A stretch of DNA of 64,000 bases from Elizabethkingia bruuniana (GTDB taxonomy: Bacteria > Bacteroidota > Bacteroidia > Flavobacteriales > Weeksellaceae). This document shows positions 4,856 through 42,978 of the stretch, in pieces; the stretch's first letter is position 1; each line of letters starts with the position of its first letter. The notes below the pieces were generated by a model. The model was not told where the DNA came from and did not search any database. It saw nothing but the letters and a program-made list of their open reading frames with translations. The stretch lies in contig NZ_CP014337.1 in assembly GCF_002024805.1 (NCBI RefSeq), positions 1,302,001 to 1,366,000 on the forward strand, given 5' to 3'. The translations under genes and the position numbers were made by a program.

Positions 4856-4907
4856 CAAAAGATTTAAAAACTTAAATCTTTTTAATATTTCAATTTTAAA
4901 TTAAATA

Positions 4908-5783
4908 ATGCACAGAGCAGGTTTTGTTAATATAGTGGGGAAACCCAATGCAGGAAAGTCTACGCTTCTTAACCAGTTAATGGGGGAGAAACTGGCTATT
5001 GTTACCCAGAAAGCACAGACAACCAGACATCGTATTTTTGGTATTTATAACGAGGACGATGTCCAGATTGTTTTTTCTGATACTCCGGGAGTTTTAGACC
5101 CTAAGTACGGATTACAGGAGAAAATGATGGAATTTGTGAAGGAGAGTTTACAAGATGCTGATGTTTTCCTTTTCATTGTAGATATTACAGATAAAGCACA
5201 ACCTTCAGAATTTCTTATTGAAAAGCTGAATAAAATCCCGGTTCCGGTACTTATCCTTATCAATAAAGTAGATCAGGCAGATCAGAAAGTTCTTGAAGAA
5301 ACTGTTGCGCTATGGCACGAGAGGATTCCTAAGGCAGAAATATTACCTATATCCGCCTTAAATGCTTATAATACAGAATATATCTTGCCAAAATTAAAAT
5401 CTTTATTACCAGAAAGTCCGGGATACTACGATAAAGATCAGTTTACAGATAAGTCTGAAAGATTCTTTGTAAATGAGGCTATCAGAGAGAAAATCCTTCT
5501 GAACTACGAAAAGGAAATTCCGTATTCTGTAGAAGTTGTTACAGAAATGTTTAAGGATAAAGGAGAAATGATCTTTATAGATAGTATTATCTATGTAGAA
5601 AGAGAAACTCAAAAGGGGATTATCATTGGTCATAAAGGAGAATCTATAAAGAAAGTTGGGACTGAGGCCAGAATGGATTTGGAGAAATTCTTTGGAAAGA
5701 AGCTTCACCTTAATCTTTTTGTAAAAGTTAAAAAAGATTGGCGTAAAAATGACAGAGACCTGAAAAATTTTGGTTATCGCTAG
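4908..5783 (+). CDS. era: GTPase Era
   Basis: Essential GTPase that binds 16S rRNA and helps 30S subunit maturation. At 291 residues it has the full layout: G1 GKPNAGKST near residues 10-18, G2 TTRHRIFGI, G3 DTPGV near 58-62, G4 NKVD near 121-124 and G5 SAL. A C-terminal KH domain contains IIGHKGESIKKVGTEAR. It is preceded by its own -7 box and followed 45 bp later by a TPR gene. Confidence 0.97.
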   Translation: MHRAGFVNIVGKPNAGKSTLLNQLMGEKLAIVTQKAQTTRHRIFGIYNEDDVQIVFSDTPGVLDPKYGLQEKMMEFVKESLQDADVFLFIVDITDKAQPSEFLIEKLNKIPVPVLILINKVDQADQKVLEETVALWHERIPKAEILPISALNAYNTEYILPKLKSLLPESPGYYDKDQFTDKSERFFVNEAIREKILLNYEKEIPYSVEVVTEMFKDKGEMIFIDSIIYVERETQKGIIIGHKGESIKKVGTEARMDLEKFFGKKLHLNLFVKVKKDWRKNDRDLKNFGYR

Positions 5784-5828
5784 ATAAATTCAGTAAATTC
5801 ATTTATCTTTAAGTAAAGAATTTCAAAG

Positions 5829-6323
5829 ATGAACGAATATTTAGATTCAGAATTTGACCGTGCGGATGACCTGATCAGTCAGGATCTAAACGAAGAAGCT
5901 AAAGCGGTACTCAATAATATTTTATTGGAAGATCCTAAATATGGCAAAGCACATAACCATATAGGCTGGCTTTTAAAAAATAAAGAGAATGATGCCGTAG
6001 AAGCTGAAAAGCATTATAAACTAGCTATAGATTTTACTCCGGAATATGGAGCTTCTTATCTTAACTATTCTTACCTTTTATCAGAAGCAAAGCGCTATGA
6101 TGATCTTCGGGATATTCTGACAAAAGCAGAATCTGTTGAAGACGTTAATAAAAGTAATCTTGCAAGGGAGTGGGCATATTATTATGAAGATACACGGCAA
6201 TATGAAAAAGCAATTGAGAAGTATAAAGAATACGCACTATCACTTTATGAAAACTCATACATTGAGAAAGCTAAAGAAGGCATTGAAAGATGTAAAATGA
6301 AAATAGATATACAAAAGATGTAA
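5829..6323 (+). CDS. tetratricopeptide-repeat protein
   Basis: A 164-residue soluble helical protein, not assigned to a named family. TPR-like units are visible: EEAKAVLNNILLEDPKYGKAHNHIG, then EKHYKLAIDFTPEYGASYLNYS, and YEKAIEKYKEYALSLYEN near the C-terminus, each with the small/aromatic spacing of TPR helices. It has no signal peptide. Such proteins are usually scaffolds for other proteins. It is the last gene before a strong terminator and is probably expressed with era. Confidence 0.7.
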   Translation: MNEYLDSEFDRADDLISQDLNEEAKAVLNNILLEDPKYGKAHNHIGWLLKNKENDAVEAEKHYKLAIDFTPEYGASYLNYSYLLSEAKRYDDLRDILTKAESVEDVNKSNLAREWAYYYEDTRQYEKAIEKYKEYALSLYENSYIEKAKEGIERCKMKIDIQKM

Positions 6324-6324
6324 T

Positions 6325-6354
6325 AAAAAGGCCTGATAAAGGGCCTTTTTATTT
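6325..6354 (+). terminator. intrinsic terminator after the TPR gene
   Basis: AAAAGGCC / GGCCTTTT stem with a short loop followed by TTTATTTT, just after the TPR gene stop. Confidence 0.85.
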
Positions 6355-6408
6355 TGGGTAAACTAATTATTAATTCATAATTTCGTAATTATAAGTTAAT
6401 ATGTTAAT

Positions 6409-8814: not shown

Positions 8815-8816
8815 GC

Positions 8817-8848
8817 AAAAAGCTCCCAAATGGGAGCTTTTATTTTTA
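8817..8848. terminator. bidirectional intrinsic terminator
   Basis: AAAAGCTCCCA / TGGGAGCTTTT hairpin with a 2-nt loop and flanking A and T runs. It serves the convergent S9 peptidase and META lipoprotein genes. Confidence 0.9.
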
Positions 8849-8863
8849 TATGTTTGAAATCGC

Positions 8864-9337
8864 TTACTCTGCTACAGCGCGGAATCTTGCTAACGGAGCC
8901 ATACGAGCCTTGTTAATAGACAATACATCTCCTTCTTTGCTCACTGTATAATTATCAGCAGCTATTAAGGCTTTACTCAAGCCTTGTTCGATACTCATAT
9001 CTTCACAAGCCATCATAGTAGACATTCCCTGAGCAAACTGAACTCTAAAGCCGGTTAGCTTAAGATTTCCACCGATACCATTACAGCCACCCGATGCTTC
9101 ATATCTATACTCTTTATCCTGCTTTAGAAGTTTCAGATAAGGTTCTTTTCCGTTCACTTTATCGGCTACAGGTTTACCGTTTAGCTCAATTAATTTCCAT
9201 TTTTTTCCAAGAACTGTATTTTCGGGCATTGTATTTTGTTGTGATGTGTTATTATTGTTGTTCGTATTCTGAACAGTATTACAGGAGTTTGCAAATAGTA
9301 ATATTCCTGCAGCAATAAGTGTAAGATGTTTTTTCAT
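8864..9337 (-). CDS. META-domain (HslJ-like) lipoprotein
   Basis: A 157-residue lipoprotein: signal peptide with a lipobox-like end (LLFANSC, Cys19), an Asn-rich linker (NTNNNNNTSQQN), then one META domain. The domain shows GKKWKLIELNGKPV, the core ASGGCNGIGGNLKLTG and STMMACEDMSIEQGLSKAL. The paired Cys residues and the CNGIGG core are the family signature. HslJ-type proteins have been linked to heat shock and novobiocin tolerance in E. coli; the role here is unknown. A decayed second copy lies at about 11249-11345. Confidence 0.88.
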   Translation of the reverse strand: MKKHLTLIAAGILLFANSCNTVQNTNNNNNTSQQNTMPENTVLGKKWKLIELNGKPVADKVNGKEPYLKLLKQDKEYRYEASGGCNGIGGNLKLTGFRVQFAQGMSTMMACEDMSIEQGLSKALIAADNYTVSKEGDVLSINKARMAPLARFRAVAE

Positions 9338-9446
9338 AATTTATTTTTAAAAAATTTTATGTTTATTATTTACTAAGATACTTTTTTTTATAAATAGGTT
9401 GGAAAATAATCTGTTTTCTTCATAATTTATTTTACTGAAACGATCA

Positions 9447-9478
9447 TTGATCTGATTATAAATATTTTACTACATTTG
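9447..9478 (+). promoter_or_regulatory. promoter of the ABC-F gene (-33 TTG, -7 TACATTTG)
   Basis: The -7 box TACATTTG is at 9471-9478, with TTG at 9447-9449, 21 bp upstream. This leaves a leader of roughly 110 nt before the ABC-F ATG. The leader contains a start-stop pair (ATGTAG, about 9508) and a small CCTGA/TCAGG hairpin. Confidence 0.5.
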
Positions 9479-9593
9479 TAGTATCATTCAAAATTCAGAT
9501 AGTAAGCATGTAGAATTCGATTTCTTTCCGTAATTATTTAATCCTGATGTCAGGGTTAATTTCTATTTATTCATTTTTTTAAAGAAAGAAATA

Positions 9594-11180
9594 ATGCTTA
9601 CGTTACAAAATATCACTTATCAGCACCCTGATAAGGAGATTCTTTTTGAGAAGCTTAATTTTATAGTTAATAAAGGCGAAAAGATTGCAATTGTCGGAAA
9701 TAATGGTTCCGGTAAATCTACATTATTAAAACTAATCTCCGGATTATTAATACCTGCTGCAGGAGATATAAGAACAGAAGGGTCTGTTTATTATCTGCCA
9801 CAAATCCTGGAACAATTCGATACACAGAATATAGCAAGTGCTTTGGGAGTGAAGAAAAAGCTTTCAGCTTTAAGAGAGATTCTGGAAGGAACGGTTACCG
9901 AAGAGAATATGACAGTTCTTGATGACGACTGGGATCTGGAAGAAAGAATAAAACAAGCGATGGAAGCATGGGGCTTGTTAGACTTTAGAGCAGAGGAGCC
10001 GATGAATCGGCTAAGTGGCGGTCAGAAGACAAAAGTTCTGATTGCCGGTATAGAAGTCCATCAGCCAGATATTATACTGATGGATGAACCTACCAATCAT
10101 CTGGATAGAAAGAGCAGGGAGCAGTTATATGAATTTATTGAGAATACAAATAAAACCCTTCTGGTCGTTAGCCATGACAGAACCTTGTTAAACTTATTGC
10201 CTAAAACAGCAGAACTAAACCGTAAAGAAATGGTGCTTTATGGTGGTAACTATGATTTTTATAAAGAGCAAAAACAGATACAGCAAAATGCATTACAGAA
10301 TAGTATTAAGAATACTGAAAACGCACTGAAAAAAGCCAAAGCTACTGAACGAGAAACTCTGGAACGCCAGCAAAAGCTTGATGCAAAGGGAAAGAAGAAA
10401 CAGGAAAAAGCAGGTGTAGCTAAAATCATGATGAATACTCTGCGGAACAATGCTGAAAACAGTACAGCTAAAATAAGAGACACCCATTCTGATAAAATAG
10501 ACGGTCTTAGTCAGGAGCTTCAGCAGCTAAGAAGAGAAGCTCCACTTACAGATCAAATGAAATTAGGATTTGATCAGACTAGCCTTCACCGTGGTAAAAT
10601 ACTGGTAAAAGGAGAGCATATAAACTTTGCCTACCAGGATAGGAATATTTGGAAAAAACCTTTGGATATTGTTGTTACCAGTGGAGAAAGGATTCTGATA
10701 AGTGGAGAAAACGGATCGGGAAAAACAACATTGATTAAAGTTCTTTTAGGACAGCTGAAATCTTCTGAAGGTATTATAGAAAGGGCAGATTTTTATTCTG
10801 TATATATCGATCAGGATTATTCTATGATTGATCATTCGTTGAATGTAATTCAACAGGCAGAATCATTTAACCTGCTTCCTTTACCTGAACACGAAGTAAA
10901 AACAATACTCAATCGCTTTTTGTTTGGGAAAGAGACATGGGATAAATCTTGTAGTGTACTGAGTGGCGGTGAAAGGATGAGGCTATTGCTTGCATGTTTG
11001 TCAATTGCAGGAAAAGCTCCGGATATTATTATTCTGGATGAGCCTACCAATAATCTTGACATTCAGAATATCGAGATTCTTACCAATGCTATTAGAGATT
11101 ACAAAGGAACGCTATTGGTAATTTCACATGATGATGTCTTTTCTGAAGAGATAAATATTGAGACCAGAATTGTATTATAA
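9594..11180 (+). CDS. ABC-F family ATPase
   Basis: A 528-residue cytosolic protein with two ABC domains and no membrane segment. Domain 1: Walker A GNNGSGKST near residues 36-44, signature LSGGQKTKV near 139-147, Walker B LMDEPTNHLD. A charged coiled linker follows at about 215-310. Domain 2: Walker A GENGSGKTT near 370, signature LSGGERMRL, and ILDEPTNNLD. ABC-F proteins act on the ribosome as translation factors or antibiotic-protection proteins. The long leader would fit a regulated resistance-type gene, but sequence alone does not decide. Confidence 0.93.
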   Translation: MLTLQNITYQHPDKEILFEKLNFIVNKGEKIAIVGNNGSGKSTLLKLISGLLIPAAGDIRTEGSVYYLPQILEQFDTQNIASALGVKKKLSALREILEGTVTEENMTVLDDDWDLEERIKQAMEAWGLLDFRAEEPMNRLSGGQKTKVLIAGIEVHQPDIILMDEPTNHLDRKSREQLYEFIENTNKTLLVVSHDRTLLNLLPKTAELNRKEMVLYGGNYDFYKEQKQIQQNALQNSIKNTENALKKAKATERETLERQQKLDAKGKKKQEKAGVAKIMMNTLRNNAENSTAKIRDTHSDKIDGLSQELQQLRREAPLTDQMKLGFDQTSLHRGKILVKGEHINFAYQDRNIWKKPLDIVVTSGERILISGENGSGKTTLIKVLLGQLKSSEGIIERADFYSVYIDQDYSMIDHSLNVIQQAESFNLLPLPEHEVKTILNRFLFGKETWDKSCSVLSGGERMRLLLACLSIAGKAPDIIILDEPTNNLDIQNIEILTNAIRDYKGTLLVISHDDVFSEEINIETRIVL

Positions 11181-11187
11181 AAGAAAA

Positions 11188-11219
11188 ATCCTTGTCAGGG
11201 TTTTGACTCTGACAAGGAT
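11188..11219 (+). terminator. hairpin after the ABC-F gene
   Basis: Perfect 11-bp stem (ATCCTTGTCAG / CTGACAAGGAT) with a 10-nt loop, 7 bp after the ABC-F stop. There is no T run behind it, so it may be a weak terminator or an mRNA-stabilising hairpin. Confidence 0.55.
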
Positions 11220-11248
11220 AACTTATTAAAGATTTTTATAAAACGCTT

Positions 11249-11345
11249 ATTCTGTTACAGCCTGGAACTTTGCTAATGGAGCCATACGTGCTTTATTAAG
11301 TGAAAGGATATCACCTTATTTGTGTAGTTATAGTTTTATCTGATA
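11249..11345 (-). pseudogene. remnant of a second META-domain lipoprotein gene
   Basis: On the minus strand the last 23 codons read GDILSLNKARMAPLAKFQAV-TE-stop, almost the same as the C-terminus of the intact META lipoprotein at 8864 (GDVLSINKARMAPLARFRAV-AE). Just upstream the match continues at DNA level but with an in-frame TAA where the intact gene has GAA, and about one base missing. No further homology is visible beyond that, and no start remains. It looks like the 3' end of a duplicated or recombined META gene. Confidence 0.8.
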
Positions 11346-11381
11346 TAGTTAATTAGCATATGTATATGAGATTTATGGCAT

Positions 11382-11416
11382 AAAAAATCCGAAAGAAACT
11401 CTTTCGGATTTTTTTA
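11382..11416. terminator. bidirectional intrinsic terminator
   Basis: AAAAAATCCGAAAG / CTTTCGGATTTTTT hairpin with a tetraloop-sized gap and flanking A and T runs, 16 bp after the end of the permease gene (minus strand). Confidence 0.9.
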
Positions 11417-11431
11417 ATATATCTATAAGAT

Positions 11432-12847
11432 CTACTTCATTTTTTTACTTTGCTTTACCAGAAGGTAGCAGATGTATAAAAATGCTACCCATATCGGAAT
11501 TAGCTCCACAGAAATTTTTAACCCTGTAAACCACATAATGACTAAGATTCCGAAAAGGAATATTAAGCATATATAATTAGTTGCCGGGTACAGAAAAGAA
11601 GGGAATTTTGTCTTTTGTCCTTTATGCGCCTGCTTGAATTTAAAATGTGTAAAGCTGATCATAATCCAGTTGATAACCAGAGATGATACTACAAGAGACA
11701 TCAGTATACTAAGAGCTTTTTCCGGAATAATCTTGTTAATAACAATACAGATTGCAGCGAATACTGCAGAAACTAATATTGCCATTACCGGAACATGGTT
11801 TTTATTCAGTTTTGATAAGAATTTAGGAGCGTTACCTTGTTCTGCAAGTCCGAATAGCATACGACTGTTACTGTATACACTACTGTTGTATACTGACAAT
11901 GCAGCCGTTAGAACAATAATATTCAGAACATTTGCAATAAGACTTGTGAAATACACAGTATGCCCGAATAAGTTAAACTGGAAGCCTTTTAATCTCTCGA
12001 AAACCATAACAAATGGGCTGCTTCCTTCTGTAATATTGGCCCATGGAGATAGTGAGAATAGGATAATCAATGCTCCTACATAGAAAATAAGAATTCTGTA
12101 GATTACCTGATTAGTTGCCTTAGGTATATTCTTTTCAGGATTTTCTGCTTCAGCAGCTGTTATCCCTACAAGTTCTAATCCACCAAAGGAAAACATAATA
12201 AGCGCCATAGCAGCTAATAACCCTTGAAAACTACCGCCAGAAGAAGTACTGATCCAGCCTTTAGGGAAGAAGCCTCCGTTATTCCACAGGTTGCTTATCG
12301 TTGCATTTTCCCCGCCGGTACCACTAATAAGCAGATAACTACCGAATAAGATCATAGCAATAATAGCTACAACTTTTATAATAGAAAACCAAAACTCAGC
12401 CTCTCCATATACTTTTACAGAAGCCAGATTTAGTGCATTAATTACAAAGAAGAAAAATAAACTGGACACCCACAACGGAATTTCAGGCCACCAGAATTGT
12501 ACATAAACTCCTATTGCGGTAAGCTCAGACATACTTACCAAGATATACAACATCCAGTAATTCCAGCCAGAAGCAAATCCGGCAAAAGGGCCCCAATATT
12601 TGTATGCAAAATGGCTGAAGCTACCTGAAACAGGTTCCTGGACAACCATTTCACCCAATTGACGCATTATAAAAAAAGCAATGAAACCTGCCATTGCATA
12701 ACCTAAAATTACAGAAGGACCTGCCAATACAGCTGCAGGACCTATACCCAGGAATAGCCCGGTACCAATTGCTCCGCCTAAAGCAATAAGCTGAATGTGA
12801 CGATTTTGTAAACCGCGTTTTAATTCTTTCTTGTCTGAATTCTCCAA
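11432..12847 (-). CDS. amino acid permease (APC superfamily)
   Basis: A 471-residue inner-membrane protein with about 12 hydrophobic segments. The first carries the APC signature IALGGAIGTGLFLGIG near residues 22-37. The charged N-terminus (MENSDKKELKRGLQNRHIQ) and the loop GGLELVGITAAEAENPEKNI match the AAT group (GABA, proline, aromatic and basic amino acid permeases). These are proton symporters for amino acid uptake. The substrate cannot be named. It is a stand-alone gene with its own terminator. Confidence 0.9.
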   Translation of the reverse strand: MENSDKKELKRGLQNRHIQLIALGGAIGTGLFLGIGPAAVLAGPSVILGYAMAGFIAFFIMRQLGEMVVQEPVSGSFSHFAYKYWGPFAGFASGWNYWMLYILVSMSELTAIGVYVQFWWPEIPLWVSSLFFFFVINALNLASVKVYGEAEFWFSIIKVVAIIAMILFGSYLLISGTGGENATISNLWNNGGFFPKGWISTSSGGSFQGLLAAMALIMFSFGGLELVGITAAEAENPEKNIPKATNQVIYRILIFYVGALIILFSLSPWANITEGSSPFVMVFERLKGFQFNLFGHTVYFTSLIANVLNIIVLTAALSVYNSSVYSNSRMLFGLAEQGNAPKFLSKLNKNHVPVMAILVSAVFAAICIVINKIIPEKALSILMSLVVSSLVINWIMISFTHFKFKQAHKGQKTKFPSFLYPATNYICLIFLFGILVIMWFTGLKISVELIPIWVAFLYICYLLVKQSKKMK

Positions 12848-33134: not shown

Positions 33135-35639
33135 TTATTGATTTACTTTATCACGTCGCTGCATTGCGATGTGCTTGATGGCGAGTTCTACATTGTCATC
33201 CAATTCAGAAGCGAGTTGCATCACTTCTAATTTTTCGGTTTCTTCGGTGGTGTAAGCGAGATACTCCTCTAGGCTAACTTCGGTGGCATAAACTGCCGAG
33301 TGCGTACCACCTAATCCTATCCAAACCTCTTTGTACAGACGGCTGATGTCATTGTTCATATTGATAGAAAGTACTTGCCCTTTCTCTTTATCCGTCAGTC
33401 CCAACATTGCCTGTATATCATCGAACTTGTTCATATACTTGCGTTGGTCTAAAAGGATTTTACAGTCTGAATTATTGATGATACTTTCTTTCACGATAGG
33501 CGATTGAATGATGTCATCAACTTCCTGCGTAACGACGATGGCTTCTCCGAAGAATTTACGGACGGTTTTAAACAAATACTTGATGTATTCTGCCATTCCT
33601 TCTTTGGCAATCGCTTTCCACGCTTCTTCAATCAGTATGAGTTTTCGAATACCTTTAAGTCTTCTCATTTTATTAATGAAAACTTCCATAATAATGATGG
33701 TTACCACGGGAAAGAGGATTTTATGGTCTTTAATCGCATCAATTTCAAACACGATAAAACGTTTTGTAAGAAGGTCTAACTGTTTGTCAGAATTGAGCAA
33801 ATAATCATATTCGCCACCTTTGTAATAAGGTTCCAACACGTTGAGAAAATTGGCAATATCAAAGTCTTTTTCCCTGACTTCTTTTCTTTCTAATACCTTG
33901 CGGTAATCGCCTTTTACATATTCGTAAAAACCGTTGAAAGACGGGAAATCATCAGTGGTTTTTATCCGTTCGATATATCCGCTTACGGCATTAGAAAGGG
34001 CAACTTCTTCCGAACGAGTTGGTGGTTCATCATCACGTTTCCAAAGGGTCAGTATCAAAGTCTTGATACTTTCACGCTTCTCAATGTCAAAAACGCCATC
34101 ATCTGTGTAGAAAGGATTAAATGCAATCGGATTATCTTCGGTATAAGTGAAATAAACGCCGTCTTCGCCTTTGGTTTTACCTTTGATAAGTTCGCATAAA
34201 CCTTGATAAGAATTACCCGTATCCACCAGCAAAACGTGAGCGCCTTGCTCGTAATACTGCCGTACCATATGGTTTGTAAAGAAGGATTTTCCGCTTCCCG
34301 AAGGACCGAGGATAAACTTGTTACGGTTGGTAATAATTCCACGTTTCATAGGTAAATCCGAAATATCCAAATGAATAGGTTTGCCGGTCAATCGGTCAGC
34401 CATTTTTATCCCGAATGGCGAAGGCGAATTGTGGTAATTGGTTTCTTCCGTAAAAAAGCACAATGCTGGTTCAATGAAGGTGTAAAAACTTTCCTCACTC
34501 GGAAAATCGGCAGCGTTGCCCGGCATTCCTGCCCAATACAAAGTAGCTACATCAGTAGTGTTATGGCGTGGTTTACATTCCATCAATGCCAAGGCACTTC
34601 CGCAATCATTTTTCAACTGCTTTAGTTCAGCTGGGTCATCTGACCACGCCATAATATTGAAATGCGCACGAATAGAAGCCAGCCCGAAACTGTGAGCCTC
34701 GTTCAGATATTTTTCTATCCATTCTTTGTTAATTTGATTGGCACGGCTGTACCTTGCCAAAGAGTGCATATTCCTTGCAGATTTCTCAAACTTTTGCAGG
34801 TTGTCTTCACTGTTATCCAAAAACAAATATTGGTTGTAGATATGATTGCAGCTGAGCATCAAACCTACTGGGGCAGCAAAAGACAGTCGGCAATCACTTC
34901 GGTCGGTAGATAATTTTTCGTAACGGGTATCAGTTGAAACTGCTCCTGGCAAATCATCGGTGTCCGACAAAGTATGAAGGCTTAATCTTTTATTACCGAT
35001 ACGAACCTCTTCGGAACCGAGAGCGATGTCCTGCATTGGCGTACCTACTTCTCTTGAAAGTGTTAGATACTGTTCTAACAAGCCTTGCTTTTCATCTGTT
35101 CCGATGATGTCATCTTCAGTTAGGCGTTGCAGGCTTACAAATCCGCTATCGTTTACAATCCTCTCAAACTGTGAAACTGCTTCCATAAATCGGTGTATCG
35201 CTTCTTTATCCCTAATTTCTTTCGGGATAAGAGAACCTTTGCAAAGCGAGCTGAAGTTGCTTTGCATACGCATTCTTTCCTTGCTCGTTTTGGTAAGGAA
35301 CAAATAGCAATAGTGATTTAAAAAAGGTCTTTCGTTGAAATGCCGTTGATAGGATTTTGCCAAAAAACTTTGGTTTTCTTCTGTCAAATCTGGCGCATAA
35401 TTTTCCTTGATATACCAATCCTGTTTGTGAACCACCGTGAAATCTGGTAAGGTTTTAATCGCCTTGTGCCAAGCGGAATGAATGGCTTCGTATTCTGCCG
35501 CTGCTACCGTGAAGAGTTCCGGCAATCGCACTTCAAAACAGGCAGTAATGTCTGCATCTTTTGAAAGGATGCAGTTGTTTTCTACTGCTAACAAAGGAAA
35601 TTTGTTTTCCAATGTGGTTGTTTTTGCTACATTTCTCAT
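33135..35639 (-). CDS. traG: conjugative transposon ATPase TraG (VirB4-like)
   Basis: An 834-residue cytosolic or membrane-associated ATPase that powers the transfer apparatus. Walker A GPSGSGKSFFT lies near residues 444-454, and Walker B RKLILIEEAWKAIAKEG near 652. The motif RKFFGEAIVVTQEVDDIIQS follows. The N-terminal third has the TraG_N start (VENNCILSKDADITACFEV). It is full length for VirB4-type proteins. Its ATG overlaps the traF stop by 4 bp. Confidence 0.95.
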   Translation of the reverse strand: MRNVAKTTTLENKFPLLAVENNCILSKDADITACFEVRLPELFTVAAAEYEAIHSAWHKAIKTLPDFTVVHKQDWYIKENYAPDLTEENQSFLAKSYQRHFNERPFLNHYCYLFLTKTSKERMRMQSNFSSLCKGSLIPKEIRDKEAIHRFMEAVSQFERIVNDSGFVSLQRLTEDDIIGTDEKQGLLEQYLTLSREVGTPMQDIALGSEEVRIGNKRLSLHTLSDTDDLPGAVSTDTRYEKLSTDRSDCRLSFAAPVGLMLSCNHIYNQYLFLDNSEDNLQKFEKSARNMHSLARYSRANQINKEWIEKYLNEAHSFGLASIRAHFNIMAWSDDPAELKQLKNDCGSALALMECKPRHNTTDVATLYWAGMPGNAADFPSEESFYTFIEPALCFFTEETNYHNSPSPFGIKMADRLTGKPIHLDISDLPMKRGIITNRNKFILGPSGSGKSFFTNHMVRQYYEQGAHVLLVDTGNSYQGLCELIKGKTKGEDGVYFTYTEDNPIAFNPFYTDDGVFDIEKRESIKTLILTLWKRDDEPPTRSEEVALSNAVSGYIERIKTTDDFPSFNGFYEYVKGDYRKVLERKEVREKDFDIANFLNVLEPYYKGGEYDYLLNSDKQLDLLTKRFIVFEIDAIKDHKILFPVVTIIIMEVFINKMRRLKGIRKLILIEEAWKAIAKEGMAEYIKYLFKTVRKFFGEAIVVTQEVDDIIQSPIVKESIINNSDCKILLDQRKYMNKFDDIQAMLGLTDKEKGQVLSINMNNDISRLYKEVWIGLGGTHSAVYATEVSLEEYLAYTTEETEKLEVMQLASELDDNVELAIKHIAMQRRDKVNQ

Positions 35640-35965
35640 ACGATATTTTGTTTAGGATTGAATTTCAGATAGCGGTGCACGAGCTTGCGGCAGATGATGT
35701 ATTTGGGATGTCTTTTTTTTGCCCCGATTTTCATTAATCCGTGTTCGCCGTATTTTCTGTTGAGCGAAAAGGTTTGCCACACTATCAGCGAAGAACCGCC
35801 CGCACCAAGAAACAGACAGAAGTAAGAGTTTACACCTGCCATATACAGTATCATTACGAGAATAAGCGTACCCAGTAATCCGCCTGCGAAAATGAACAGA
35901 TACTGTGCTTTCAGCCCTTTAAATTCCACCGTTCTTCCGATGCCTTTGTTGATATTGTAATTCAT
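35636..35965 (-). CDS. traF: conjugative transposon protein TraF (DUF4133, VirB3-like)
   Basis: A 109-residue membrane protein: MNYNINKGIGRTVEFKG, then two membrane segments (YLFIFAGGLLGTLILVMILYM without a long gap to FCLLFGAG-type residues), then a basic tail with HPKYIICRKLVHRYLKF. The DUF4133/VirB3-like layout fits. ATG 35965 is chosen over an upstream in-frame start inside traE. It overlaps traG by 4 bp and lies 11 bp after traE. Confidence 0.87.
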   Translation of the reverse strand: MNYNINKGIGRTVEFKGLKAQYLFIFAGGLLGTLILVMILYMAGVNSYFCLFLGAGGSSLIVWQTFSLNRKYGEHGLMKIGAKKRHPKYIICRKLVHRYLKFNPKQNIV

Positions 35966-35976
35966 AAGGCTTGGGA

Positions 35977-36282
35977 TTATAGGAAGAATGAACGCAGGAT
36001 AGTAGCCGCCACAATCAAGAAGATACACGCACCAAACCACGAAGCTGCCGTTTTGCTTGTGTCGGGGTCGCCCGAACTAAACTTGTTGTACACTTTAACG
36101 CCGCCTATTAACCCTACGACTGCACCGATAGCGTAAATCAATTGAGTTGCGGGGTCGAAATAAGAAGTTACCATTTGCGTAGCCTCGTTGATGCCGCCCA
36201 CACCGTTTCCCTGTGCGAACGCACCAATTCCTGACAGCATAGCCACGGCTGCCAGCAAAACTTTTTTTCTTTGTTTTTCCAT
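35977..36282 (-). CDS. traE: conjugative transposon protein TraE (DUF4134, pilin-like)
   Basis: A 101-residue protein with a signal peptide (MEKQRKKVLLAAVAMLSGIGAFAQ) and two further hydrophobic stretches (QLIYAIGAVVGLIGGVKVYNKF and WFGACIFLIVAATILRSFF). This is the VirB2-like pilin layout of DUF4134/TraE. It is the first gene of the tra operon on this side. The spacer to the next, divergent gene is 191 bp and should hold the promoter. Confidence 0.9.
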   Translation of the reverse strand: MEKQRKKVLLAAVAMLSGIGAFAQGNGVGGINEATQMVTSYFDPATQLIYAIGAVVGLIGGVKVYNKFSSGDPDTSKTAASWFGACIFLIVAATILRSFFL

Positions 36283-36473
36283 AATTGAAACACATTAATT
36301 TGTTACTGTTTTCCCGCACCTTGCGGACTTTCGGGACAAAGGTGTTTCAGAAATTAAAGCGTTGTAAGAAAGTGGCAATGAGAGGAATTGTTTGGCGGTG
36401 GGTGGCATCCAAAACGTAGAAAAGTATTATATTAGTTGTTTTGAAAATCTTAATTTAAAAACGCAAATTTTAA
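36283..36473. promoter_or_regulatory. divergent spacer between traE and the Gabija-like genes
   Basis: A 191-bp gene-free spacer that must hold the promoters of the tra operon (minus) and of the OLD-nuclease gene (plus). A consensus TAnnTTTG box was not found on either strand with confidence. Confidence 0.35.
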
Positions 36474-38615
36474 ATGTACATATCTAAAGTCAGCCTTGTC
36501 AATTATAGAAATTTTGTTAATGCATATTTCAATTTCAATAAAGGAATAAACACCGTTATAGGTGAAAATGGTTCAGGAAAAACCAACGTTTTTAAAGCAA
36601 TCAGATTGCTTTTGGAAGATGCTTCTCTTCAGTTTGCCTATAAACTAACTGAGGGTGATTTTAATAGAACTTTAGACAAAGGAAGATGGAAAGGTCATTG
36701 GATTATAATCAGCATAGAATTTGATGAACTGAATGATGAAGAAGCCATTCAATCATTATTCATACACGGAACCGGTATTGCCGAAGCGGACTATGTAGAA
36801 AAAGCTACTTACAATCTTTTTTTTCGCCCAAAAGCAGACATCAGACAAAAACTTTCTGAGTTAGCGGAAGGCGACAAAGCAGGATTACAAGCTATCCTTG
36901 ATGATATTAACATTTTAGATAACTATGAAACGTTTTTTACAGGGAAAAGTACAGCGGATTTTAACGACCCTGATGTGTATAAAGAACTTGTAGGTGATTT
37001 TGAAAATGTCATTTTTCCTTCTGCTATTGATGCGTCAAAATTTGGTTCCAAAATTCCTCATCAGCTATCTGTTGCAAAAGAAGTTTCATTTACTTTTATA
37101 CAGGCACTAAGAGATGTTGTAAGTGATTTCCATAATAACAGAACCAATCCGTTACTCACCCTTTTAAAAAATAAAAGTGGCGAAATAAAAGATGCTGATT
37201 ACCAGCCTATCAGCGATTTAGTAAAAGAATTGAATGAAAGCATTGAAGCACTTCCAGATGTACAGACTATCCGTGATGATATTAAAACAACAATTCAAGA
37301 TGCTGTTGGGCTTACCTATTCTCCCTCATCATTATCTATAAAATCTAGTGTTCCTGATGAAGCGGAAAAACTGCTCCAATCCTTGAAATTATTTATTGGA
37401 GAACCAGGAGAAGAATATGAAGGCGGTATCCACGAGTTAAGCTTGGGAGGTGCTAATCTTATTTTCCTGACCTTAAAACTTTTGGAATTTAAATATCGAA
37501 AATCAAAAGATACATTCGCAAATTTCTTAATTATAGAGGAGCCAGAGGCTCATATTCATAATCACATTCAAAAAACATTATTCGACAAATTAGATTATGG
37601 TGATACTCAAATCATATATTCAACCCATTCTACGCAAATATCTGAAGTCAGTAATGTAGAAAACATAAACATCTTAGCTAAAAAACTAAATTATGCAGAG
37701 GTTTATCAGCCTTCTACAGACTTGGGGGCAGAAAACATCAATCAGGTACAACGTTACTTGGATGCGGTAAGAACCAACTTGCTCTTTGCTAAAGGTGTGA
37801 TTTTGGTAGAAGGCGATGCCGAAGAAATTCTAATCCCAATTATAGTAAAGAAAGTTTTGGGGATAAGCTTGGACGAGTTGGGAATAAGTTTGATAAACAT
37901 TAGAAGCACTGGGTTTGAAAATGTTGCGCAACTTTTCCATAATGACAGGATACAACGTAAATGTGCTATCCTCACAGATTTAGATGATGCTATCTGCGAT
38001 ACTACTGAAAATGCTGGCGACAGTGATGCTTTGAAAAAGTATAAGAAAAAAGTAGCCGGTTCTAAGCAAAAAGGGCTGGAAAGAAAAACAAAATTAGATG
38101 CATTTGAAGCAGGTAATACGTGGGTCAAAGCATTTTATGCGAAGCACACTTTTGAAGTAGATTTTATTTCAGAAGGAAACGCTTGGGAAGTGGAGAGGAT
38201 TATTAAAAAAGTCTATATTGACCCAGCAACACGTACGCAAGCAAAAACGGATATCGAAAGTGCCGATGTGGCTATTTATGGTAAGCGGGTGCTTACAATG
38301 GCAAAACAGGAAGGAAAAGGTTGGTTTGCAATTATGCTAGGCAAACATATTTCTTATAAAACTGAGATCCCAGCTTACATTCTTGATGCTATCCTTTTTG
38401 CAAAAGAAACCTATTCTTCAAACATAGTTGCAGACATTATCCAATATAGAATGAATAAACATTTTGAAGCTGATAATGCCCTCGATTTTACAAGTTGTAA
38501 AGCGGAACTTTTGAAATATAGAAATGGAACAAATAAATTGGAAGACTTAGCTTTTGACTTTGACCTTGTACTGCCAGACGACCAAATTTTAATACTAATA
38601 GATAAACTGAAGTAG
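36474..38615 (+). CDS. OLD-family ATP-dependent endonuclease, GajA-like
   Basis: A 713-residue protein: AAA/ABC ATPase followed by a TOPRIM nuclease. ATPase: Walker A IGENGSGKTN (about 29-38), signature HELSLGGANL (about 318-327), Walker B LIIEEPEAHIH (about 350), and the histidine switch STHSTQISEV. TOPRIM: catalytic Glu in ILVEGDAEEILIP (about 443-455) and the DxD motif in TDLDDA (about 501-506). With the UvrD-like gene 2 bp downstream this is the Gabija layout, in which GajA cleaves phage DNA when nucleotides fall. It is longer than the described GajA (about 580 residues), so it is a divergent branch. Confidence 0.87.
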   Translation: MYISKVSLVNYRNFVNAYFNFNKGINTVIGENGSGKTNVFKAIRLLLEDASLQFAYKLTEGDFNRTLDKGRWKGHWIIISIEFDELNDEEAIQSLFIHGTGIAEADYVEKATYNLFFRPKADIRQKLSELAEGDKAGLQAILDDINILDNYETFFTGKSTADFNDPDVYKELVGDFENVIFPSAIDASKFGSKIPHQLSVAKEVSFTFIQALRDVVSDFHNNRTNPLLTLLKNKSGEIKDADYQPISDLVKELNESIEALPDVQTIRDDIKTTIQDAVGLTYSPSSLSIKSSVPDEAEKLLQSLKLFIGEPGEEYEGGIHELSLGGANLIFLTLKLLEFKYRKSKDTFANFLIIEEPEAHIHNHIQKTLFDKLDYGDTQIIYSTHSTQISEVSNVENINILAKKLNYAEVYQPSTDLGAENINQVQRYLDAVRTNLLFAKGVILVEGDAEEILIPIIVKKVLGISLDELGISLINIRSTGFENVAQLFHNDRIQRKCAILTDLDDAICDTTENAGDSDALKKYKKKVAGSKQKGLERKTKLDAFEAGNTWVKAFYAKHTFEVDFISEGNAWEVERIIKKVYIDPATRTQAKTDIESADVAIYGKRVLTMAKQEGKGWFAIMLGKHISYKTEIPAYILDAILFAKETYSSNIVADIIQYRMNKHFEADNALDFTSCKAELLKYRNGTNKLEDLAFDFDLVLPDDQILILIDKLK

Positions 38616-38617
38616 TT

Positions 38618-40438
38618 ATGTTTATTTGGGAAAAAGACAGTATCAATAAAGAACAGGAAGATGCAATTCTTGAAGATAATAGCGTACTTCTTATTGCTTG
38701 TCCCGGAAGCGGTAAAACGAGAACCCTTACATTCAAAATTGCTTATGAGTTAAGCAGGTTGAAATCAGACAAGGAATTCGTTATAGCCATAACCTACACT
38801 AATAGAGCTTCCGATGAGATAAAGGAGCGGGTTGAGTTATTAGGTGTCGATACGTCACAATTATGGATTGGCACTATCCATTCTTTTTGTATGGAATGGA
38901 TTTTAAAGCCATATCATTTGTATTCTGAACGATTGAAGAACGGCTTTAAGGTTATCAATTCTTTTGACAGCGAAAAGATATTGACCGAATTATGCAAACC
39001 CTATAAAGAAGAAAAAATAACCTATTATGATTGTGGCATCCTTGCCAAAACTGATAATTTCTATTTGACCTGTTTAGACACAAAAAAACATAATTCGTTA
39101 CAAAAAATTCTTGGGGAATATTTTGCAATCCTTGAAAAAAACCGACAGATTGATTTTGAACAAATTTTGTTTTACGCTTATGAAATACTCAAATCAAAAC
39201 CAGTTGTAGCAAATATTCTATCCAAATTATTCCCTTTTATTTTAATTGATGAGTATCAGGATACTAAGGAAATACAGTATCACATCATATCCAAAATATT
39301 AAGCGTTAACAAAGGCAATTCAAAAACACTTATTGTTGGAGACCCAAACCAATCTATTTACGACTCGCTGGGAGGTTACCCAATGCCTAAAGATGAATTA
39401 GAAAAATTATTAGGATTTGAATTGACCCCATTAAGCTTAGATAAAAACTATAGGTCATCGTCGGCTATTATCAACTATTTTGATTATTATAAAACTTTCG
39501 ACACTCCAATTGTTGCATTTGGTAATGGAAAAGATTATCCAAGTATAATTACATTTAATTCAGTTGTCTCAGTTGATGATTTAATTGAAGAATTAGCTCA
39601 GTTAATTTTGTACAATGTAGAAACAGCCGGAATTAGCCCAAACGAAATATGCATCACTGCTCCACAATGGGTACATATCGCAAGCATTACAAGAAAACTT
39701 ATCATCAGACTTCCTGATTTCAGTTTTGACGGACCAGGAATGGCTCCTTTTTCTCGGGATATTGATAATTTTTGGTTCAAGGTTTCAAGAGTTGCATTGA
39801 CGGAACCATCTCCTTTTATGTATGTAAGAAGGCTAAGGTGGAGTAAAGAAATATTAAATGAACTGGATAGTGCAGGTGTTGATGTTTCAAATGTAAGTAG
39901 TAAAGAATTTTTAAGAATTTGTAATTCTTTTGAGATAAACGAGACAGATGGTTTAACTTATTTAAAAAGTTTCTTTAATCAGATTTGTGAAAAGTTAAAA
40001 ATTGTACTGCCCAATTTTCCCTTGTTAGATGAACATTTCAATTCATTTTTTGCAAGTTCTGAAAGTAGAATTCAGAGATTGATTGATGAAGGAAATCCAT
40101 ATATTGGGGATATTGAAAATTTCAGAAAAGTATTCAGACAGCGAGATGGAATTACTGTTTCCACAATACACGGAACTAAAGGTGAAGAATACGATGCAGT
40201 TATTGGCTTTGGCTTATTGGACGGTTATGTTCCTCATTTTAATGATAATAATGGTATTGAAAATTCAAAGAAACTCTTGTATGTATTAGCTTCGAGAGCA
40301 AGAAAAAATTTACATCTTATTTCTGAAAAATATAGAAATGTTCATAAGTTTTATGCGCCAGATGGAAAGCCCCCAACCTCACATTTGCTTGAGTATACTT
40401 ATGATTATTCTTTCCAAAAATTTGAAGGGATGGATTGA
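38618..40438 (+). CDS. UvrD/Rep-like helicase, GajB-like
   Basis: A 606-residue SF1 helicase. Q-motif and Walker A: NKEQEDAILED and ACPGSGKTRTL (Lys33). Motif Ia AITYTNRASDEI, motif Ib GTIHSFC, motif II LIDEYQDTKEIQ, motif III GDPNQSIYDSLGG, motif IV KNYRSS, motif V TIHGTKGEEYDAVI and motif VI LYVLASRARKNLHLI are all present. It should be an active helicase. In Gabija, GajB senses DNA ends and activates GajA. The start is 2 bp after the nuclease gene, so the pair is tightly coupled. It is longer than described GajB (about 490). Confidence 0.87.
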   Translation: MFIWEKDSINKEQEDAILEDNSVLLIACPGSGKTRTLTFKIAYELSRLKSDKEFVIAITYTNRASDEIKERVELLGVDTSQLWIGTIHSFCMEWILKPYHLYSERLKNGFKVINSFDSEKILTELCKPYKEEKITYYDCGILAKTDNFYLTCLDTKKHNSLQKILGEYFAILEKNRQIDFEQILFYAYEILKSKPVVANILSKLFPFILIDEYQDTKEIQYHIISKILSVNKGNSKTLIVGDPNQSIYDSLGGYPMPKDELEKLLGFELTPLSLDKNYRSSSAIINYFDYYKTFDTPIVAFGNGKDYPSIITFNSVVSVDDLIEELAQLILYNVETAGISPNEICITAPQWVHIASITRKLIIRLPDFSFDGPGMAPFSRDIDNFWFKVSRVALTEPSPFMYVRRLRWSKEILNELDSAGVDVSNVSSKEFLRICNSFEINETDGLTYLKSFFNQICEKLKIVLPNFPLLDEHFNSFFASSESRIQRLIDEGNPYIGDIENFRKVFRQRDGITVSTIHGTKGEEYDAVIGFGLLDGYVPHFNDNNGIENSKKLLYVLASRARKNLHLISEKYRNVHKFYAPDGKPPTSHLLEYTYDYSFQKFEGMD

Positions 40439-40460
40439 GCCATTAAAAAAATAAATTACG

Positions 40461-41108
40461 ATGCCATTAAAAATAAATGTACCCTACAGCGATAAAGACA
40501 GTGCCAAATCAAAAGGCGCTTTTTGGGATGTAGAACAAAAAACTTGGTTTGTTCCTGACCATAAGGATATTAATGATTTCCAGCACTGGATAGACAAATC
40601 AAAAGTATCGGTTATTATAAAATCGCCCGTATCAATTGCTTTAAATAGTAGTGATTGCTATAAATGTGCAAACAAAACTGCTGTCATTTCCTTAGCTTCA
40701 AATAATTTTTATTATTTGAATACCGACGAAAATGAGGATGAAAAATGGTTTCGAGCCGATGGATTGTCTTTTTTTAGTATGCCAGTATTCATCGAAAATG
40801 AAATTGCAGGTAAAATCAAAAGATTATTTCCAAATTATAAAATTGCATATTCTAAAACAAGTAGTTATTGGGCTAATCATTGTGAACATTGTGGAGCCTT
40901 GCAAGGCGATTTTTTTCTACATTCAGAACCGGGCGGCGCTTTCTTTCCTTTAGAAATAGAAGAATATGAACAATTAACTTTCATTACTGTTCCGTCAAAA
41001 TTTGATGTAGAAATAGATGCTGATTATTCTTGGTTAAGCAATGCTGATGTCATTCCTAAATATGCCAAATCAGTATCCTACGAAGAATTTTTAGAGCAGC
41101 AAAAATAA
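40461..41108 (+). CDS. DUF5710 protein with two CxxC pairs, linked to the Gabija-like pair
   Basis: A 215-residue soluble protein. The N-terminus has a DUF5710 motif: VPYSDKDSAKSKGAFWD, then KTWFVP. In other proteins this short domain often sits beside nucleases or helicases as a nucleic-acid-binding module. The middle holds Cys66/Cys69 (CYKC) and Cys141/Cys144 (CEHC), a likely zinc site. It starts 22 bp after the helicase on the same strand and ends 13 bp before the convergent traD. It could be a third component of the module or a passenger. Confidence 0.7.
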   Translation: MPLKINVPYSDKDSAKSKGAFWDVEQKTWFVPDHKDINDFQHWIDKSKVSVIIKSPVSIALNSSDCYKCANKTAVISLASNNFYYLNTDENEDEKWFRADGLSFFSMPVFIENEIAGKIKRLFPNYKIAYSKTSSYWANHCEHCGALQGDFFLHSEPGGAFFPLEIEEYEQLTFITVPSKFDVEIDADYSWLSNADVIPKYAKSVSYEEFLEQQK

Positions 41109-41121
41109 AAAGGGAGTTTGC

Positions 41122-41757
41122 TCACACAAATTCCCCAATATCAAAATCACTCACATCACTTTTCCGCAAAGTGGAAGAACCGGCATCCGTCTCAGAAGTG
41201 AGAGTACTGTCCAAAAGCTCGGCAATTCTTCTGGAAGCACCATCTATTGAACTTTCCAGCAAACTAAATAATTCGGTTCCCTGTAATCTTTGAACTATAT
41301 CTACCGCTGTTTCCTTTTGGGCTGGTTCCAATTCTTCTTTTTGGAGCAACATCCCCACGGAGCTTAGTTCTTCAAAGGTAACCCCTTGGGCAAAACCGTC
41401 ATCGCCATCGGATATTCCGTACCTGTTCCATTCCTCTTCCTCTTCATCCAAATCAGGTATATTTCTGAAAACTTCGTCCAGCTCTTCCTGCGGAATTTGA
41501 ATACCTACGTTTTCATTTTCGTCGTATTCTATGTCTAAATTATCAGGATTTATTTCGTCTTCCTCAATTTGGCGTTCATTGGCAGTGTTTGGCATCGAAA
41601 GGCTTCTTACTGGCTTAGGCAGACCCATAATATCAGGAAGATTTGGATTGATTTTTTCTTGTGTCGGTTTTTGTTTCGACTTTTTATTGATGATGATTTT
41701 ATCTTGTACAAGCAAGAAAATTACAATCAGCAAGCATATTACAATTACTATTTCCAT
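41122..41757 (-). CDS. traD: conjugative transfer protein TraD
   Basis: A 211-residue protein with one N-terminal membrane segment (MEIVIVICLLIVIFLLV), a basic patch, then a long acidic region (EEDEINPDNLDIEYDENEN, DLDEEEEEWNRYG) and a C-terminal helical part. It fits the TraD-type protein that follows traA-B/C in flavobacterial ICEs; this rests mainly on position. It is 11 bp after the DUF3408 gene. It would normally be followed by traE, but here the Gabija-like insert lies between. Confidence 0.65.
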   Translation of the reverse strand: MEIVIVICLLIVIFLLVQDKIIINKKSKQKPTQEKINPNLPDIMGLPKPVRSLSMPNTANERQIEEDEINPDNLDIEYDENENVGIQIPQEELDEVFRNIPDLDEEEEEWNRYGISDGDDGFAQGVTFEELSSVGMLLQKEELEPAQKETAVDIVQRLQGTELFSLLESSIDGASRRIAELLDSTLTSETDAGSSTLRKSDVSDFDIGEFV

Positions 41758-41768: not shown

Positions 41769-42206
41769 TTAAAAAATGGGTTTATATTTCTCATTAAAAT
41801 CGTCTATAATGGCTTTCTCAAATACTTCAAAATGATGCTCCAAAATATTATCAAGGTAAGCATACAGCGGTATTTCATCTTTTCCTATAACCTGTATAAT
41901 GCGGGATAATCGTTCGTGATATTCCTGCCGGATGTAGATGCTTTTATCTCCACGCTTTGTCATCGAATGCGTTTTCAAAAAATGGTCGCCATAACTTCCA
42001 TCAAGAATTTTCTTTGTTCGGTTCTTTTCCTTTTGGGCAGGTTTATTTCTTGAAAATTCTTCTTGTTTTACAGCCTCATTTTCCATTTTTTCAATGGGTT
42101 CAGGAGGAAGCTGTATTCCGTCTTTTTTTACGCCATCCACCATCAAGTTCATCATCATTTCCTCGTTAATATCGGGCGTAGCTTTTCTTTTATTATCTTT
42201 CTCCAT
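41769..42206 (-). CDS. DUF3408 protein (TraB/TraC-type)
   Basis: A 145-residue basic protein. The N-terminal half is charged and probably disordered. The C-terminal half has a ribbon-helix-helix-like DUF3408 segment: KSIYIRQEYHERLSRIIQVIG, then IPLYAYLDNILEHHFEVFE. Such proteins accompany ParA-like TraA in Bacteroidota ICEs and probably bind DNA near it. It is 4 bp downstream of traA. Confidence 0.82.
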   Translation of the reverse strand: MEKDNKRKATPDINEEMMMNLMVDGVKKDGIQLPPEPIEKMENEAVKQEEFSRNKPAQKEKNRTKKILDGSYGDHFLKTHSMTKRGDKSIYIRQEYHERLSRIIQVIGKDEIPLYAYLDNILEHHFEVFEKAIIDDFNEKYKPIF

Positions 42207-42210
42207 AAGG

Positions 42211-42978
42211 CTATAATTGAATGATTTTTAAAAACTCCTCGATGAATAAATTCAATTGACAAGCTTTCATCAATCGTTCATCCGGCGGCATTACTGTGGA
42301 ACGGAAAACTGTTTTGCTATCCGCTTCACTTTCTTTGCGGAAACGTGTACTGTTCTTGATTTGGCTTTGCATCAAACTCAATCCTAATTGCTCAATCAAT
42401 TGATTGTAAACAGCATACAATGGCGTACTTTCTCTTCCGTCCACTTGGTTCCAAAAAAGATGAATGGTTTCTATGGAGGTTTCTCCTTTTTTCATAATCA
42501 CATCCTGCAAAAGTTGTGTAAAAATGAGTGTACTCTCCATTACTACACGGTCTGCTGCGATGGGCGTAAAAATGTGATGCATTCCCGCCAATGCATTCAG
42601 AATTCCTGGCGTGTTCACAGTTCCTGGCAAGTCAAAAAATACCACATCCACAGGAGTGGTAGAAGTATTTACAAATTCTTGAGCCGCTTCCAATACACTA
42701 TCCGCTTTGTGCTGCATAATCGGATAGGCTTTTTTGTTGATGGTGGTAAATTGTTTGTACGCCAGCTTTTTTAAAGTTTCATTTTCCATAACCATTGCCA
42801 AATCTCTTGTCTTCATTTTCATCAGACTGTGTTGTGGAAAATCCGCATCAAATACAGCTACATTGTAGCCCAATCTATAGTGCATCGTACTTGCAACGAG
42901 CGTTGTAAATGTACTTTTGCCAACGCCACCTTTTTGAGAAGAAAATGCAATAAACAGAGGTTTCTTTTTTGTGTCCAT
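42211..42978 (-). CDS. traA: ParA-like ATPase TraA
   Basis: A 255-residue cytosolic MinD/ParA ATPase. The deviant Walker A is SQKGGVGKST near residues 14-23, followed by VFDADFPQHS and DVVFFDLPGT. It has no HTH domain and belongs to the group of ParA-like proteins at the head of Bacteroidota tra operons. It may position the element or the transfer machine. It is the first gene of the traA-DUF3408-traD unit. Upstream lies a quasi-repetitive spacer that could contain its cognate site. Confidence 0.92.
   Translation of the reverse strand: MDTKKKPLFIAFSSQKGGVGKSTFTTLVASTMHYRLGYNVAVFDADFPQHSLMKMKTRDLAMVMENETLKKLAYKQFTTINKKAYPIMQHKADSVLEAAQEFVNTSTTPVDVVFFDLPGTVNTPGILNALAGMHHIFTPIAADRVVMESTLIFTQLLQDVIMKKGETSIETIHLFWNQVDGRESTPLYAVYNQLIEQLGLSLMQSQIKNSTRFRKESEADSKTVFRSTVMPPDERLMKACQLNLFIEEFLKIIQL

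What the first reader, a model, noticed from the sequence alone, without database searches (positions are those of the whole stretch)
36474..41108. Gabija-like defence module with a third gene (OLD nuclease, UvrD helicase, DUF5710)
The sequence shows an OLD ATPase/TOPRIM nuclease followed 2 bp later by a full SF1 helicase, the order of Gabija. Family knowledge: GajAB is an anti-phage system. Both proteins are much longer here than the described pair (713 and 606 against about 580 and 490). A DUF5710 protein with two CxxC pairs follows on the same strand 22 bp later. If it travels with this branch it would be an undescribed Gabija component or variant.
Basis: partly seen in the sequence, partly recalled or inferred. 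Interest (0 to 1): 0.78.

Follow-up and report, generated by a model that had tools for sequence, protein, structure and literature searches.

The report
Gabija defence in a conjugation-gene cargo slot
Three neighbouring genes turn out to be an ordinary two-gene anti-virus system (Gabija) plus what looks like an unrelated passenger gene, and they sit in a spot inside a mobile DNA element where related elements carry many different bacterial defence systems.

Summary
The gene facts are right: 36474-38615 is a 713-aa OLD-type GajA, 38618-40438 a 606-aa UvrD-type GajB, 40461-41108 a 215-aa DUF5710 protein with two CxxC pairs. The pair is full-length Gabija of a branch that PADLOC already models at this length (709 and 594 aa). 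The third gene does not travel with it: a profile of its family hit nothing behind GajB in 129 other GajA+GajB loci (53 of the close branch), including two sisters (GajA 86% identical) at the same place of related elements. Its relatives are stand-alone genes of conjugative plasmids; none of 12 neighbourhoods searched held GajA or GajB. The more interesting result is the address. The block fills the traE-traD interval of a CTnDOT-like conjugative element. In 43 such elements this interval measures 196-12,656 bp (over 500 bp in 39), while the four neighbouring tra junctions rarely exceed 500 bp. Its contents differ: Gabija, Hachiman, argonaute, Septu, CBASS, Avs2, Avs3, IetAS and others; 26 of 43 hold a defence-library protein. 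This looks like an exchangeable defence slot. Background density was not measured, and five more distant elements lack cargo there. Nine library searches listed no paper that I recognised as describing it.

The parts
36474..38615 (+). GajA: OLD-family ATPase/TOPRIM nuclease, 713 aa
   Evidence: PADLOC PDLC00072 full length, 1046 bits; Pfam AAA_15 and OLD-like_TOPRIM; motifs present
38618..40438 (+). GajB: UvrD/Rep-like SF1 helicase, 606 aa
   Evidence: PADLOC PDLC00127 full length, 853 bits; Pfam UvrD-helicase and UvrD_C
40461..41108 (+). probable passenger gene: DUF5710 domain (residues 5-44) plus a tail with CYKC and CEHC, 215 aa; family of conjugative plasmids
   Evidence: Pfam PF18974; plasmid relatives; not found behind GajB in 129 other loci
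36407..41111 (.). cargo of the traE-traD slot (edges from flank conservation, approximate, above all on the right)
   Evidence: flank alignment of nine close elements
36280..36406 (.). conserved left flank of the slot, from the traE start codon
   Evidence: conserved in the nine close elements aligned
41112..41136 (-). hairpin over the traD stop codon followed by a T-rich run, possibly the terminator of the traA-traB-traD unit; the traD side is conserved in nine elements, the cargo-side arm in about four of them
   Evidence: alignment, fold -10.9 kcal/mol; not listed by the consensus scan
35977..36282 (-). traE-like, 101 aa
   Evidence: name by gene order (recalled); located in 43 elements
35636..36040 (-). 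traF-like, 134 aa
   Evidence: name by gene order (recalled)
33135..35639 (-). traG-like conjugation ATPase, 834 aa
   Evidence: name by gene order (recalled)
41122..41757 (-). traD-like, 211 aa, no Pfam match
   Evidence: name by gene order (recalled)
41769..42206 (-). traB-like, DUF3408, 145 aa
   Evidence: Pfam PF11888 4e-34
42211..42978 (-). ParA/traA-like ATPase, 255 aa
   Evidence: name recalled

Best explanation
The block is a canonical two-gene Gabija system (GajA nuclease/ATPase plus GajB helicase) of the long ~710/600-aa branch. It is carried as cargo in a recurrent slot between traE and traD of a CTnDOT-like integrative and conjugative element of Bacteroidota. The pair most likely works as published for Gabija: a GajA-GajB complex in which helicase and TOPRIM nuclease recognise and cut invading DNA (inferred from family membership; activity not shown here). 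The DUF5710 gene is a separate, separately mobile gene typical of conjugative plasmids. It lies between GajB and the right edge of the slot; it may be co-transcribed with Gabija but is not needed by it (shown: sisters lack it; inferred: no functional need). Its own role is probably in conjugation or plasmid maintenance, for example binding transferred DNA through a metal-binding tail (inference). The slot lies between two leftward tra units, so cargo there probably interrupts neither and can be replaced as a block (inference from gene order, differing contents and conserved flanks).
For: Full-length PADLOC matches. 0 of 129 GajA+GajB loci with at least 1 kb beyond GajB have the third-gene family downstream; 53 of them are close branch. 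Same pair at the same site without the third gene: L036 and L052/L216. Third-gene relatives in 314 plasmid records at E<=1e-8, 280 of them typed conjugative; 12 neighbourhoods searched, no GajA or GajB at E<=0.01. Slot: traE-traD gap over 500 bp in 39 of 43 elements, against 0 of 41 (traG-F), 2 of 41 (F-E), 1 of 43 (D-B) and 0 of 43 (B-ParA). Conserved flanks around differing cargo in nine close elements. Defence-library proteins in 26 of 43 slots.
Against: The 22-bp spacing allows co-transcription. No background rate of defence proteins was measured for other parts of these elements. Five more distant elements (L269-L273) have no large cargo at traE and are not among the 43; with them the figure is 39 of 48. 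The cargo-side arm of the right-hand hairpin is shared by only about four of nine elements. Function was not tested. The solo structure model of the third protein was uninformative (mean pLDDT 38).
Confidence: 0.86

Rival explanations
1. The DUF5710 protein is a new third Gabija component (sensor, regulator or specificity factor) in a very recent sub-branch.
For: Same strand, 22 bp behind GajB; GC like GajB's (32.9 and 32.7%).
Against: Not found behind GajB in 129 other loci, including sisters with 86% identical GajA at the same site; its family lives elsewhere without Gabija.
Confidence: 0.05
2. The DUF5710 protein is functionally tied to Gabija without being a core part, for example by shielding the element's own transferred DNA from the neighbouring nuclease (a self-protection or counter-defence factor brought in from plasmids).
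For: Family concentrated on conjugative plasmids (280 of 314 records), in several cases among tra genes; conserved Cys pairs suggest metal and perhaps nucleic-acid binding.
Against: Sister elements carry Gabija without it; no Gabija near its relatives in 12 neighbourhoods; no functional data.
Confidence: 0.08
3. The pair is a housekeeping OLD/UvrD repair module, not defence.
For: GajB scores against PcrA, UvrD and Rep models.
Against: The best of those, PcrA, gives 179.5 bits against a cut-off of 911, while the GajB model gives 853 bits; it is mobile cargo in a slot shared with other defence systems.
Confidence: 0.02

Closest known systems
Gabija (GajA-GajB), PADLOC branch PDLC00072/PDLC00127
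   Same: Domain content, gene order, full-length profile match and protein lengths
   Different: Nothing seen in the pair itself; one DUF5710 gene follows here and in none of the 129 other loci
Solved Gabija GajA (e.g. 8jq9; the Bacillus cereus VD045 system, attribution of that entry recalled)
   Same: ATPase-TOPRIM GajA
   Different: GajA is longer here (713 against 578 aa); phmmer E 9.5e-8 to it
DUF5710 (PF18974) proteins of conjugative plasmids (IncI1, IncI2, IncHI1B, IncC; Vibrio, Xanthomonas, Campylobacter)
   Same: DUF5710 plus a tail with two Cys pairs, 206-269 aa in the eleven aligned, 24-37% identical over 77-91% of the length in the full-length plasmid hits listed
   Different: The relatives examined are not next to Gabija; this copy is in a Bacteroidota chromosomal element
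CTnDOT/ERL-family ICEs, e.g. ICERan elements of Riemerella (PMC6491836; passages and sections 13 and 14 read)
   Same: ICERanRCAD0133-1 is described with separate traABD and traEFGGIJKMNOQ clusters and, among its accessory genes, a Toprim-domain protein
   Different: The parts read do not describe the traD-traE interval as a cargo or defence hotspot
Cargo replacement in Bacteroidales T6SS ICEs (PMC8102008; passages seen)
   Same: Nearly identical elements carrying different cargo, with recombination proposed
   Different: The passages seen concern T6SS cargo, not a traE-traD defence slot

Membership tests
Gabija | GajA with OLD-type ABC ATPase and TOPRIM domain, full-length family match | tested here: met
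   PDLC00072 1-712 on 1-708/709; AAA_15, OLD-like_TOPRIM
Gabija | adjacent UvrD-like GajB helicase on the same strand | tested here: met
   2 bp downstream, PDLC00127 1-598 on 1-592/594
Gabija | ATPase, TOPRIM and helicase motifs present | tested here: met
   (motif names recalled)
Gabija | GajA-GajB complex and DNA cleavage | not testable with these tools
   needs purified proteins
Gabija | protects cells from phage | not testable with these tools
   needs a phage challenge
   0 of 129 loci, 0 of 53 in the close branch
DUF5710 (PF18974) | domain above Pfam cut-off | tested here: met
   53.4 bits against a cut-off of 26.5
defence hotspot of a mobile element | conserved flanks around differing cargo | tested here: met
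   left flank sharp in nine elements; right flank conserved from the end of traD
defence hotspot of a mobile element | cargo enriched in defence genes over background | tested here: inconclusive
   26 of 43 slots hold a PADLOC protein at E<=1e-8 (L036 by identity only); no background measured

The most novel reading that the evidence does not exclude
The traE-traD interval of CTnDOT-like elements in Flavobacteriia and relatives is a dedicated, undescribed plug-in site for anti-phage systems. It lies between two tra transcription units, and whole systems are swapped by recombination in its conserved flanks, so that these conjugative elements act as carriers of interchangeable immunity; unassigned multigene blocks in the slot would be candidate new defence systems.
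Probability: 0.55. Interest if true: 0.6.

Novelty: new member of a known kind. Interest (0 to 1): 0.42.

Why it matters
As a Gabija system it is ordinary, and the survey removes a false lead (a third component). The address is worth more: an easily recognised interval between traE and traD that holds different defence systems in element after element gives a direct way to list defence systems of Bacteroidota and to look for new ones. It also suggests that one conjugative element family moves immunity between hosts. The window's own genome has two such elements with different defence cargo in the same slot (cargo).

Tried and rejected
Third gene as a Gabija part: rejected. Housekeeping repair pair: rejected. 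Phage or viral origin of the third gene: no match in 50,697 phage records; in IMG/VR 15 loci matched, all only in the first 51 residues. Third gene in Bacteroidota: 2 of 395 phylum genomes (own, plus a match of about 41 residues in G200) and 2 of 395 order genomes (own, plus a 22.5-bit match in G367); neither the G200 contig nor the G367 stretch holds GajA or GajB, and the family profile does not hit the G367 stretch. Solved-structure search of the third protein: nothing meaningful (best E 0.25). Structure model of the third protein: mean pLDDT 38, so no fold search was made. The slot is not general: in five more distant elements (traG 71-75%: L269-L273) a same-strand gene starts 165-268 bp from traE, so no large cargo lies there; in elements with traG at 57% or less (L274-L296) the slot could not be read with these queries. 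Promoter- and terminator-like sites in the block were near chance (27 found, 20.6 expected; 1 found, 2.9 expected). Literature: nine searches. Listings were capped (for example 40 of 335 and 15 of 414), and all but three of the listed papers were seen only as titles and abstract starts; passages of PMC6491836 (with two sections), PMC8102008 and PMC5458099 were seen. None of what I saw describes a traD/traE defence slot or a DUF5710 Gabija.

Full report
OBSERVATION. The window is bases 1302001-1366000 of a 4.43-Mb single-contig genome. The first two proteins match full-length PADLOC models of GajA (PDLC00072, 709 positions, 1046 bits) and GajB (PDLC00127, 594 positions, 853 bits), with the expected Pfam domains. 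The best solved relatives by sequence are class 2 OLD nucleases, then GajA, for the first, and UvrD/PcrA helicases for the second. Against NCBIfam the best repair model for GajB is PcrA, 179.5 bits against a cut-off of 911; every other NCBIfam match listed is also below its cut-off. Key motifs are present (names recalled). So this is a complete Gabija pair. Its length is normal for its branch; the solved GajA is shorter (578 aa).

HOW GABIJA WORKS. From abstract starts in the listing (not read further): GajA and GajB form an octameric ring of four and four (PMC10822852), GajA is a sequence-specific, nucleotide-sensing DNA nicking endonuclease (PMC8136825), and a 2025 preprint proposes that phage DNA end-binding proteins that antagonise RecBCD sensitise phages to Gabija (PMC12407980). 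I take the mechanism over by family membership; nothing about activity was shown here.

THE THIRD GENE DOES NOT TRAVEL WITH THE PAIR. A profile built from the third protein and 11 plasmid relatives was run over six-frame translations of everything fetched. Of 129 loci with GajA and GajB on one strand (tblastn E<=1e-5) and at least 1 kb beyond GajB, the window's own loci left out, 53 are close branch (GajA above 380 bits). None has the family behind GajB. The one hit, in L049, is a DUF5710 domain in a long reading frame about 4 kb upstream on the other strand. A recount with a looser first pass gives 136 loci, all with the two genes adjacent; no further locus is hit. Duplicates were not removed; L052 and L216 are the same DNA. 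In one search, L058 had no GajB match and L003 and L004 were too short to judge; L298 and L299 replaced the latter two. The controlled comparison is with L036 (Sphingobacterium corticibacter) and L052/L216 (Chryseobacterium sp. SC28): GajA 86%, GajB 77-78% identical, same place between traE and traD, and GajB ends 45 and 23 bp before the traD gene with no third gene.

WHERE THE THIRD GENE BELONGS. tblastn finds relatives in 1027 plasmid records at E<=0.01 and in 314 at E<=1e-8, of which 308 cover at least 80% of the protein and 280 are typed conjugative; no phage record matches. I fetched 12 neighbourhoods, from Vibrio, Xanthomonas, Klebsiella, Escherichia, Salmonella, Enterobacter, Campylobacter and Aeromonas (8.5-16.6 kb each). 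It is not beside Gabija in any: neither GajA nor GajB matches at E<=0.01. In several it lies among tra genes. Two Campylobacter stretches hold a second, longer DUF5710 protein. Eleven of the 12 copies are full-length; the Aeromonas copy is split into two adjacent reading frames. The family alignment keeps Trp residues in the DUF5710 part and four cysteines in two pairs, which suggests a bound metal (inference). Function is unknown; a role in conjugation or plasmid maintenance is my inference.

THE SLOT. Left of the block lie traE-, traF- and traG-like genes and right of it traD-, traB- (DUF3408) and ParA-like genes, all leftward (names by recalled CTnDOT gene order). The ParA gene has a match in 36 of 395 order genomes, 43 places, and the traG gene in 36 of 395 phylum genomes, 46 places. 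I fetched 37 of the 43 ParA places; one is the window itself, and five weak ones were left, of which G210 came in later as L297. Of the 46 traG places, 32 were fetched, ten were already held and four (G182, G261, G363, G379) were left. The count uses 43 elements: window, L036, L213-L249, L266-L268, L297. Of the 32 traG places only those four (L266, L267, L268, L297) were added; five (L269-L273) show traE without large cargo and 23 (L274-L296) could not be read. In the 43, the traE-traD gap has median 3507 bp, range 196-12,656, and exceeds 500 bp in 39 of 43 (39 of 48 with L269-L273). The other junctions exceed 500 bp in 0 of 41 (traG-F), 2 of 41 (F-E), 1 of 43 (D-B) and 0 of 43 (B-ParA). In nine close elements (traE at least 95% identical) the left flank is conserved to a sharp point about 127 bp from the traE start. 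On the right all nine are conserved from the last codons and stop of traD. In the window, L216, L218 and nearly in L215 the conservation extends some ten bases further into a hairpin arm; the other five differ there. In the window the hairpin folds at -10.9 kcal/mol and is followed by a T-rich run; the consensus terminator scan did not list it.

CONTENTS OF THE SLOT. PADLOC matches at E<=1e-8 fall in 26 of 43 slots, counting L036 by its 86% identity rather than by a scan. Eighteen carry a protein of a named system: Gabija of this branch in the window, L036 and L216; Gabija of another branch in L213 and L228; Hachiman in L215; argonaute plus its partner in L217; a type I methylase and specificity subunit with a Septu pair in L218 (no type I restriction subunit seen); TmtA in L219 (over about half the model); IetAS in L220; Tmn in L223 (part of the model); a type IIG-like enzyme in L240; a CBASS with NucC in L242; Avs2 in L243; type I R-M, a CBASS cyclase and argonaute in L246, the window genome's own second element; MkoC in L248; Avs3 in L266; PD-Lambda-3 B in L268 (and also in L228). 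Eight match only PADLOC candidate (PDC) models (meaning of PDC recalled): L214, L227, L234, L235 (weak, 38 bits), L236, L238, L239, L241; L234, L236, L238, L239 and L241 share one protein family. Eleven were scanned, some only in part, without a match (L222, L225, L229, L230, L232, L233, L237, L244, L249, L267, L297); Pfam shows an outer-membrane beta-barrel protein in L222 and a transposase in L230. Six have no reading frame of 60 aa or only one of 88 aa (L221, L224, L226, L231, L245, L247). Small ORFs were left out of the scans, and several elements are near-copies of each other. Blocks combine and separate: L214 has a five-gene block alone, L216 has reading frames of the same five lengths followed by Gabija, L036 has Gabija alone, and the window has Gabija plus the DUF5710 gene.

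LIMITS. No background density of defence proteins was measured for the rest of these elements, so enrichment is likely but not quantified. Nine literature searches showed no description of the slot, but their listings were capped, few papers were opened and the library lacks most subscription journals. The closest paper opened (PMC6491836, passages and two sections) lists traABD and traEFG... as separate clusters, and a Toprim protein and a solitary methylase in one element, without describing a hotspot in the parts read. PMC8102008 (passages) reports cargo replacement in Bacteroidales T6SS elements, so exchange of cargo in such elements is known in general.

Noticed in passing
G000:C1:891100-906600 (L246): The same genome has a second element of this family whose traE-traD slot (12.7 kb) holds a type I R-M set, a CBASS-type cyclase and a long argonaute with its partner.
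   Followed up: partly
L219:5938-12672 and L268:9903-14158: Two slots share neighbouring proteins of about 301, 378-390 and 348-356 aa with like beginnings that match no PADLOC model and sit with a TmtA or PD-Lambda-3 protein: a possible unassigned defence block.
   Followed up: no
L225, L227, L229, L230, L244, L249 (traE-traD slot): Proteins whose sequence begins near 'ELPxI' recur on the tra strand in the slot, with no PADLOC match (and no Pfam match for L244); possibly an element-specific gene.
   Followed up: no
L307:7553-8237: In an Aeromonas plasmid the DUF5710 part and the Cys-pair part of the third-gene family are two adjacent, slightly overlapping reading frames.
   Followed up: no
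L298 (G285:C11:76000-86500): A Gabija pair of the same branch (GajA 48%) lies on the same contig as a related element, about 9 kb past traG, so Gabija is not confined to the traE-traD slot.
   Followed up: partly
L030:8923-9798: In a Priestia plasmid a protein with a Shedu SduA domain follows GajB by 6 bp.
   Followed up: no
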